Origin: Erythrobacter sp. 3-20A1M
GTDB lineage: Bacteria; Pseudomonadota; Alphaproteobacteria; Sphingomonadales; Sphingomonadaceae
Direction of reading: 5' to 3'
Assembly: GCF_018636735.1 (NCBI RefSeq)
Contig: NZ_CP045200.1
Span: 1,240,001 to 1,304,000 of the forward strand
DNA: 64,000 bases
Notes under the pieces: generated by a model
Seen by the model: only the letters and a program-made list of their open reading frames with translations
Told to the model about the DNA's origin: nothing
The model's database searches: none
In this document: piece after piece, positions 36,767-36,843 of the stretch
Numbering within the stretch: the first letter of the stretch is position 1
Layout: each line of letters opens with the position of its first letter
Translations under genes and position numbers: made by a program

Positions 36767-36843
36767 TGGCGCACCCGACAGGATTCGAACCTGTGACCTT
36801 CGCCTTCGGAGGGCGACACTCTATCCAGCTGAGCTACGGGTGC
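36767..36843 (-). tRNA. tRNA-Arg (anticodon CCG), island-borne
   Basis: A complete 77-nt gene with encoded CCA. Acceptor GCACCCG/CGGGTGC, anticodon loop CTCCGAA between TCGCC and GGCGA, T-loop TTCGAAT. Compared with the interrupted host gene it differs at five positions, four of them compensatory base pairs in the anticodon stem. It is the only intact tRNA-Arg(CCG) visible in the window and can decode CGG codons. Confidence 0.96.

What the first reader, a model, noticed from the sequence alone, without database searches (positions are those of the whole stretch)
36767..36843. Island carries a complete, recoded replacement tRNA-Arg(CCG)
The cargo tRNA matches the broken gene at 72 of 77 positions. 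Two anticodon-stem pairs are swapped in a compensatory way (CTGCC/GGCAG to TCGCC/GGCGA), so function is kept while the last two bases of the att core are changed. That would let it replace the lost tRNA and escape attack by the island's own integrase. CGG decoding normally depends on this tRNA, so partial deletion of the island could be lethal, stabilising it.
Basis: partly seen in the sequence, partly recalled or inferred. Interest (0 to 1): 0.85.

Follow-up and report, generated by a model that had tools for sequence, protein, structure and literature searches.

The report
Island tRNA replacing broken host tRNA
A small mobile DNA island has cut a bacterium's only gene for one arginine tRNA in half and carries a complete spare copy with an altered anticodon stem, an arrangement shared by many islands in related bacteria.

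Summary
An island of about 12 kb sits in the anticodon loop of the genome's only tRNA-Arg(CCG), restores neither half, and carries one intact tRNA-Arg(CCG) at 36767-36843(-), 72/77 identical to the empty-site gene. The principle is published for phages as tRNA-dependent lysogeny (PMC10865867). Here it marks a widespread element family: a close integrase in 30 of 397 family genomes, the full attR-plus-tRNA layout in 23 of those 30, and in 49 of 84 attR-signature matches in 80 named loci. Recoding is real: native-type anticodon stems in 9 of 72 element-borne tRNAs against 51 of 52 controls (Fisher 3e-24); a replicate gave 1 of 14. Escape from the element's own integrase is not shown: the anticodon loop, where strands most likely exchange, is unchanged; 6 of 23 integrase-linked elements are unrecoded; 8 of 72 targets were themselves recoded; cargo and target stems show no self-avoidance (8 against 8.2 expected); one element hit a tRNA with the window's stem while carrying that same stem (L265). 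New points: repeated stem recoding, elements nested in each other's replacement tRNA, two apparent expression designs.

The parts
24971..25015 (-). attL: displaced 3' half (positions 33-77) of the host tRNA-Arg(CCG)
25004..25015 (.). 12-nt shared repeat CTGCCTTCGGAG, left copy (island lies between the copies, 25004-36977)
   Evidence: two copies in the genome
25148..25157 (+). CGCTTACGCG, putative arm-type integrase site near attL (inferred)
   Evidence: three exact copies, all in the island; but 9 matches with up to 1 mismatch against 11.3 expected, so not enriched as such. Support is the conserved repeat in relatives' spacers
25186..26514 (+). tyrosine integrase (start codon chosen by me)
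   Evidence: Arm-DNA-bind_3, Phage_int_M, Phage_integrase; relatives
26885..27826 (+). nucleotidyltransferase-HEPN protein (cargo; start chosen by me)
27829..28278 (+). HNH protein (cargo)
28506..29594 (+). IS110-type transposase
30374..30628 (+). small HTH_17 protein, excisionase-like (inferred)
31092..32960 (+). OLD-like ATPase-TOPRIM protein (cargo, defence-like)
   Evidence: Old 1.5e-60
33162..34013 (+). MT-A70 type II DNA methyltransferase
34015..34788 (-). BglII-like restriction endonuclease
   Evidence: 3.3e-22
35312..36343 (+). Ser/Thr protein kinase (cargo)
36767..36843 (-). complete replacement tRNA-Arg(CCG), anticodon stem TCGCC/GGCGA
36848..36868 (+). two adjacent (C/T)GCTTACGCG repeats beside the tRNA, putative arm-type sites (inferred)
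36844..36965 (-). 122-nt spacer between attR and replacement tRNA; no sigma-70-like promoter above the scan threshold
36966..37009 (-). attR: 5' half of the host tRNA-Arg(CCG) with the right copy of the shared repeat
37020..37080 (-). region upstream of the 5' half with a TTTGCTAA motif; possible host tRNA promoter (inferred)
   Evidence: motif in 16 of 52 control tRNAs against 0.2 in shuffles; but the consensus scan found no promoter here

Best explanation
An integrative element whose tyrosine integrase recombines in the anticodon loop of the host's single, presumably essential tRNA-Arg(CCG). Its attP carries no tRNA half able to rebuild the gene, so integration destroys it; viability then depends on the complete tRNA-Arg(CCG) that the element carries 122 bp inside attR, in the same orientation. 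Shown by sequence: both broken halves, the single intact copy, its absence from control relatives, and the same arrangement in many other elements. Inferred: that the tRNA is charged and used, that its loss would be lethal, and that in this short-spacer type it is transcribed by read-through from the host tRNA promoter at attR. Replacement tRNAs have had their anticodon stem recoded repeatedly. My preferred reason is divergence of the integrase-binding arms, which would lower but clearly does not abolish recombination with the spare copy; that last step is weakly supported.
For: One intact CCG tRNA gene in a single-contig genome. Two halves with a shared 12-mer found nowhere else; joined halves equal the tRNA of 9 of 52 relatives. 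Same layout in 23 of 30 integrase-selected genomes; 3' half beside the integrase in 27 of 30 loci, one complete tRNA, two with none; 49 of 84 attR-signature matches in 80 loci and 18 of the 40 further loci. Native-type stem 9 of 72 against 51 of 52 controls, 1 of 14 in the replicate; paired within loci, 56 native target with recoded cargo against 1 the reverse (8e-16). Of 153 differences between 28 recoded tRNAs and their nearest native tRNA, 104 lie in the anticodon stem; unfiltered control 8 of 54. TTGAC within 60 nt upstream in 22 of 22 long-spacer and 1 of 50 short-spacer elements; pooled 24 of 24 and 1 of 61. Published genetics for the same principle in mycobacteriophages (PMC10865867).
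Against: No expression or growth data. Six of 23 integrase-linked elements are unrecoded; 8 of 72 targets are recoded; self-match 8 against 8.2 expected, pooled 11 against 9.5, so the integrase-arm reason is unproven. Acceptor stems are also more varied in elements (5 types, 1.47 bits) than controls (2 types, 0.52 bits), so the contrast is strongest in, not exclusive to, the anticodon stem. Recoded-type stems without a 5' half occur in one control (L294, CCACC) and in records picked by the attR pattern, including a Streptomyces record (L254, TCGCC). A generic promoter score did not support a host promoter in the window. Many relatives are drafts, some with the two junctions on different contigs. 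G084, the lowest-scoring integrase, appears to use the ordinary restoring layout.
Confidence: 0.88

Rival explanations
1. Ordinary tRNA island: the element restores the target from an attP-borne half, and the full tRNA is just the restored junction copy.
For: This is the usual layout (start of the Islander abstract, PMC4383910, in the listing); the divergent relative G084 looks like it.
Against: In the window neither junction is a tRNA; the complete gene lies 122 bp inside attR and differs from the joined halves.
Confidence: 0.02
2. The recoded stems are founder history: foreign tRNAs with other stems were captured a few times, without selection on the stem.
For: 31 distinct tRNA sequences among 72 copies, one of them 12 times; related spacers tend to share stems. 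Recoded-type stems occur without a 5' half in one of 52 controls, in 8 of 12 tRNAs left out of the control, and in 4 of 4 such tRNAs of the replicate, one titled Streptomyces; whether these are natural or element-borne was not resolved.
Against: Nine stem types among the 72; by distinct sequence 3 of 31 against 23 of 24 native-type (3e-11); several recoded tRNAs differ from a native tRNA only in the stem; recoded and unrecoded need at least three changes on the integrase tree.
Confidence: 0.3
3. Recoding keeps the replacement tRNA from misfolding with the 5' half transcribed just ahead of it.
For: Unrecoded stems are rarer in short-spacer elements, 3 of 50, than long-spacer ones, 6 of 22 (p = 0.02).
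Against: Folding the precursor with the actual or the native stem shows no difference (47 short-spacer cases, p = 0.93; 25 of 47 better). Folded alone, actual stems did slightly better in short-spacer cases (p = 0.04) and not in long ones (p = 0.20).
Confidence: 0.07
4. Recoding protects the tRNA from anticodon nucleases.
For: A paper title in the reference list shown reports phage tRNAs evading such defences by anticodon loop mutations (paper not read); the island carries defence-like genes.
Against: The changes seen are in the stem; my search itself required a C(C/T)CCGAA loop, so loop changes could not have been seen. No nuclease was identified.
Confidence: 0.1

Closest known systems
tRNA-dependent lysogeny of actinobacteriophages (Fionnbharth, Gabriela, Gaia; PMC10865867)
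   Same: Tyrosine integrase; attB in a host tRNA gene; short core (10 bp Fionnbharth, 8 bp Gaia); tRNA not rebuilt; element encodes the same isoacceptor.
   Different: Not recognisably a phage: all 306 phage records matched by the integrase are under 60% identity, top-listed 28.6%. tRNA-Arg(CCG), mainly Alphaproteobacteria; tRNA close to attR; recurrent stem recoding; nested insertions.
Sinorhizobium meliloti phage-related sequences that substitute a tRNA (PMC11476347, discussion and passages read)
   Same: Alphaproteobacterial integrated sequences, genomic islands among those studied, that inactivate a tRNA and bring a foreign isoacceptor.
   Different: Other tRNA genes are named as hot spots; in the parts I read I saw no account of anticodon-stem recoding or of a fixed tRNA-attR layout.
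Classical tRNA-integrating genomic islands (Islander, PMC4383910, start of abstract only)
   Same: Tyrosine integrase and flanking tRNA fragments.
   Different: Those restore the tRNA; this one does not.

Membership tests
tRNA-dependent integration (tRNA-dependent lysogeny type) | attP/attB share only a short core and neither junction is a functional tRNA | tested here: met
tRNA-dependent integration (tRNA-dependent lysogeny type) | Target tRNA is the only gene for that anticodon | tested here: met
   44 tRNA matches, one CCG gene (two CCG rows are the same gene in overlapping loci)
tRNA-dependent integration (tRNA-dependent lysogeny type) | Element encodes the same isoacceptor, intact | tested here: met
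tRNA-dependent integration (tRNA-dependent lysogeny type) | Element tRNA required for viable integration | not testable with these tools
   needs genetics
tRNA-dependent integration (tRNA-dependent lysogeny type) | Element is a temperate phage | tested here: inconclusive
   No phage structural domain in the 10 island proteins scanned with Pfam (smaller ORFs not scanned); no viral-contig relative in a close-relatives scan; no close phage integrase. It works like the system; it is not filed as lysogeny.
Classical tRNA-restoring island | Target tRNA rebuilt at attL or attR | tested here: not met

The most novel reading that the evidence does not exclude
A large alphaproteobacterial element family has repeatedly recoded, by compensatory pairs, above all the anticodon stem of its replacement tRNA-Arg(CCG), because that stem is also the binding arm of the integrase site; the elements thereby rewrite an essential host gene into a poorer landing site, shaping competition and nesting among themselves.
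Probability: 0.35. Interest if true: 0.78.

Novelty: new variant of a known kind. Interest (0 to 1): 0.6.

Why it matters
It extends tRNA-dependent integration from actinobacteriophages to a widespread family of islands without phage hallmarks in Alphaproteobacteria, shows that a core translation gene is often replaced by a mobile copy, and supplies a natural series of compensatory stem variants with which to test how an integrase reads a tRNA-gene site.

Tried and rejected
Misfolding with the half tRNA: precursor folding gave no support. Self-avoidance of cargo and target stems: none. Exclusion of later elements: 8 of 72 targets recoded, against 6 of 58 complete tRNAs of the relatives set being element-borne, own genome included, so no exclusion is detectable. 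Own sigma-70 promoter in short spacers: 3 of 50 against 3.85 in shuffles. The same score found 2 of 22 against 1.25 in long spacers, 4 of 52 against 2.25 upstream of control tRNAs, 7 of 71 against 1.7 upstream of the outermost 5' half. Phage origin. The attP-spanning promoter idea was not tested. The first integrase tree used wrong reading frames and was discarded.

Selections: the control is 52 of 64 tRNAs without a 5' half; the 12 left out came from genomes or records picked for element parts, and 8 of them have non-native stems (all 64: 55 native-type). Two more tRNAs had too little upstream sequence. Of the 72, 47 came from the attR scan; without them it is 6 of 25 against 51 of 52. One search's 53 tRNA-like 5' parts include two that are complete tRNAs (L154, L160); one search's stricter test kept 47 of the 48 loci with the layout. 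Two of the 72 are identical over the whole segment (L161, L190). L301 is a divergent tRNA from outside the family. The control (2 of 46) was filtered to native stems and so favoured my reading; unfiltered it is 8 of 54. After this check I moved the founder rival from 0.25 to 0.30, the novel case from 0.40 to 0.35 and interest from 0.62 to 0.60.

Full report
Observation. The window is 1240001-1304000 of a single-contig 3,116,220-base genome. GC is about 0.66 to the left, mostly 0.57-0.63 between about 25 and 37 kb, and about 0.65 or more just to the right. The low-GC stretch is flanked by a tRNA-Arg(CCG) 3' half (24971-25015) and 5' half (36966-37009) sharing CTGCCTTCGGAG, a 12-mer present exactly twice in the genome. 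A complete tRNA-Arg(CCG) lies at 36767-36843(-) (Rfam 69.4 bits). The joined halves are identical to the tRNA of 9 of 52 control relatives; the cargo matches them at 72 of 77 and equals none of the 52. Among 44 tRNA matches there is one CCG gene; the two CCG rows are the same gene in overlapping loci. The other arginine anticodons are ACG, CCT and TCT; that they do not read CGG is general knowledge.

The island. Pfam, on 10 island proteins, finds a tyrosine integrase with an arm-binding domain, a nucleotidyltransferase-HEPN protein, an HNH protein, an IS110 transposase, a small HTH protein, an OLD-like ATPase-TOPRIM protein, an MT-A70 methylase, a BglII-like nuclease and a Ser/Thr kinase; one had no match. 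PADLOC, on 7 of them, matches the OLD-like, methylase and kinase proteins strongly and the HEPN protein weakly. CGCTTACGCG occurs exactly three times in the window, all in the island, but near-matches are not enriched over chance (9 against 11.3). A similar paired repeat precedes the tRNA in many other elements, so I infer arm-type integrase sites.

The family. Integrase relatives at E <= 1e-90 occur in 30 of 397 family genomes. Of 30 loci, 27 have a tRNA-Arg(CCG) 3' half beside the integrase, one a complete tRNA, two none. In 23 of 30 genomes a 5' half is followed by a complete CCG tRNA in the loci read; G193 has such a pair at a second place. The others are G084 (restoring layout), G099 (two 5' halves at a contig end), G117 (no complete CCG tRNA listed), G181, G290 and G340. 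A scan of named genomes for the attR signature stopped at 120 stretches. Of 84 matches in the first 80 loci, 49, in 48 loci, have a 5' half and a complete CCG tRNA within 900 nt; 47 of the 48 titles are alphaproteobacterial by my knowledge of the names, one says only Proteobacteria. In the other 40 loci 18 have the layout. Spacing, start to start, is 165-312 in the 72 cases.

Recoding. Taking a complete CCG tRNA with a 5' half within 450 nt upstream as element-borne, 9 of 72 have the native-type stem against 51 of 52 control tRNAs (Fisher 3e-24); by distinct sequence 3 of 31 against 23 of 24 (3e-11); without scan-selected loci 6 of 25 (6e-12). T-stem types are 8 and 10, so T-stems do not differ in this way; acceptor stems are more varied in elements (5 types against 2). 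Within the same loci the target is native-type and the cargo recoded in 56 of 72, the reverse in 1 (8e-16). The replicate of 14 new segments gave 1 native-type cargo and 12 native-type targets; pooled distinct segments 10 of 85. Over 28 recoded sequences 104 of 153 differences from the nearest native tRNA lie in the anticodon stem; control among all 24 distinct control sequences 8 of 54. Copies are related by descent, so p-values overstate independence; on the tree of 29 integrases recoded against unrecoded needs three changes.

Does recoding evade the integrase? All 72 attR junctions keep CTCCGAAGGC, and in G380 the nested junctions differ at position 41, narrowing the shared stretch to CTCCGAAG; exchange therefore most likely falls in the anticodon loop, which recoding leaves alone. 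Six of 23 integrase-linked elements are unrecoded. Eight of 72 targets are recoded, two with the cargo's own stem (L047, L169), and cargo equals target in 8 against 8.2 expected; pooled 11 against 9.5, with L265 carrying the window's TCGCC stem and sitting in a TCGCC target. Four of the 72 have two stacked 5' halves (L129, L144, L169, L209), and L270 is a fifth: later elements enter the replacement tRNA of earlier ones, as PMC10865867 speculated for plasmids. Reduced binding by changed arms remains possible and needs an assay.

Expression. TTGAC lies within 60 nt upstream of the tRNA in 22 of 22 long-spacer (over 195) and 1 of 50 short-spacer elements; pooled 24 of 24 and 1 of 61. In the long class it is usually 16-17 nt before a weak -10-like hexamer, and a generic score did not separate either class from shuffles, so the evidence is the conserved TTGAC. 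A TTTGCTA motif lies within 70 nt upstream of 16 of 52 control tRNAs (0.2 expected) and of the outermost 5' half in 15 of 72 element loci, the window among those printed. The consensus scan found no promoter in 36500-37300 and no terminator between attR and the tRNA. Read-through from the host promoter is thus an inference.

Prior work. tRNA-dependent lysogeny was defined and tested genetically in mycobacteriophages (PMC10865867: abstract, discussion, one results section and passages seen). PMC11476347 (discussion and passages) reports substituted tRNAs in S. meliloti. Passages of PMC12429752 report prophages without such features, and of PMC6536676 ordinary restoration. Searches showed, in titles and abstract starts, no report of anticodon-stem recoding of such tRNAs; most subscription journals are not held. 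The kind is known; this is a new variant and a broad family.

Noticed in passing
37144-37215: Perfect 36-nt tandem duplication near the start of the conserved neighbour gene (37138-37626, MmcB-like by recall) beside attR.
   Followed up: no
G084:C1 196774-211841: The lowest-scoring integrase relative (47%) shows a complete native-type tRNA at one end and a displaced 3' half at the other: an ordinary restoring layout, perhaps the ancestral state.
   Followed up: partly
L129, L144, L169, L209, L270 (also L136): Stacked 5' half tRNAs, traces of elements inserted into each other's replacement tRNA.
   Followed up: partly
36958-36963 and attR of many relatives: GTCAAG lies 4 nt beyond CTCCGAAGGC in many elements; its complement CTTGAC could be a -35 box that in the excised circle pairs with an A/T-rich box on the integrase side.
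   Followed up: no
L254, L241, L248, L253: Recoded-type stems in complete tRNA-Arg(CCG) genes without a nearby 5' half, one in a record titled Streptomyces; natural or element-borne not resolved.
   Followed up: no
NZ_CP076395.1 363134-363392 and other plasmid records: Plasmids match part of the tRNA-spacer region (205 records, none covering 80% of the query), so such elements or tRNAs may also sit on plasmids.
   Followed up: no
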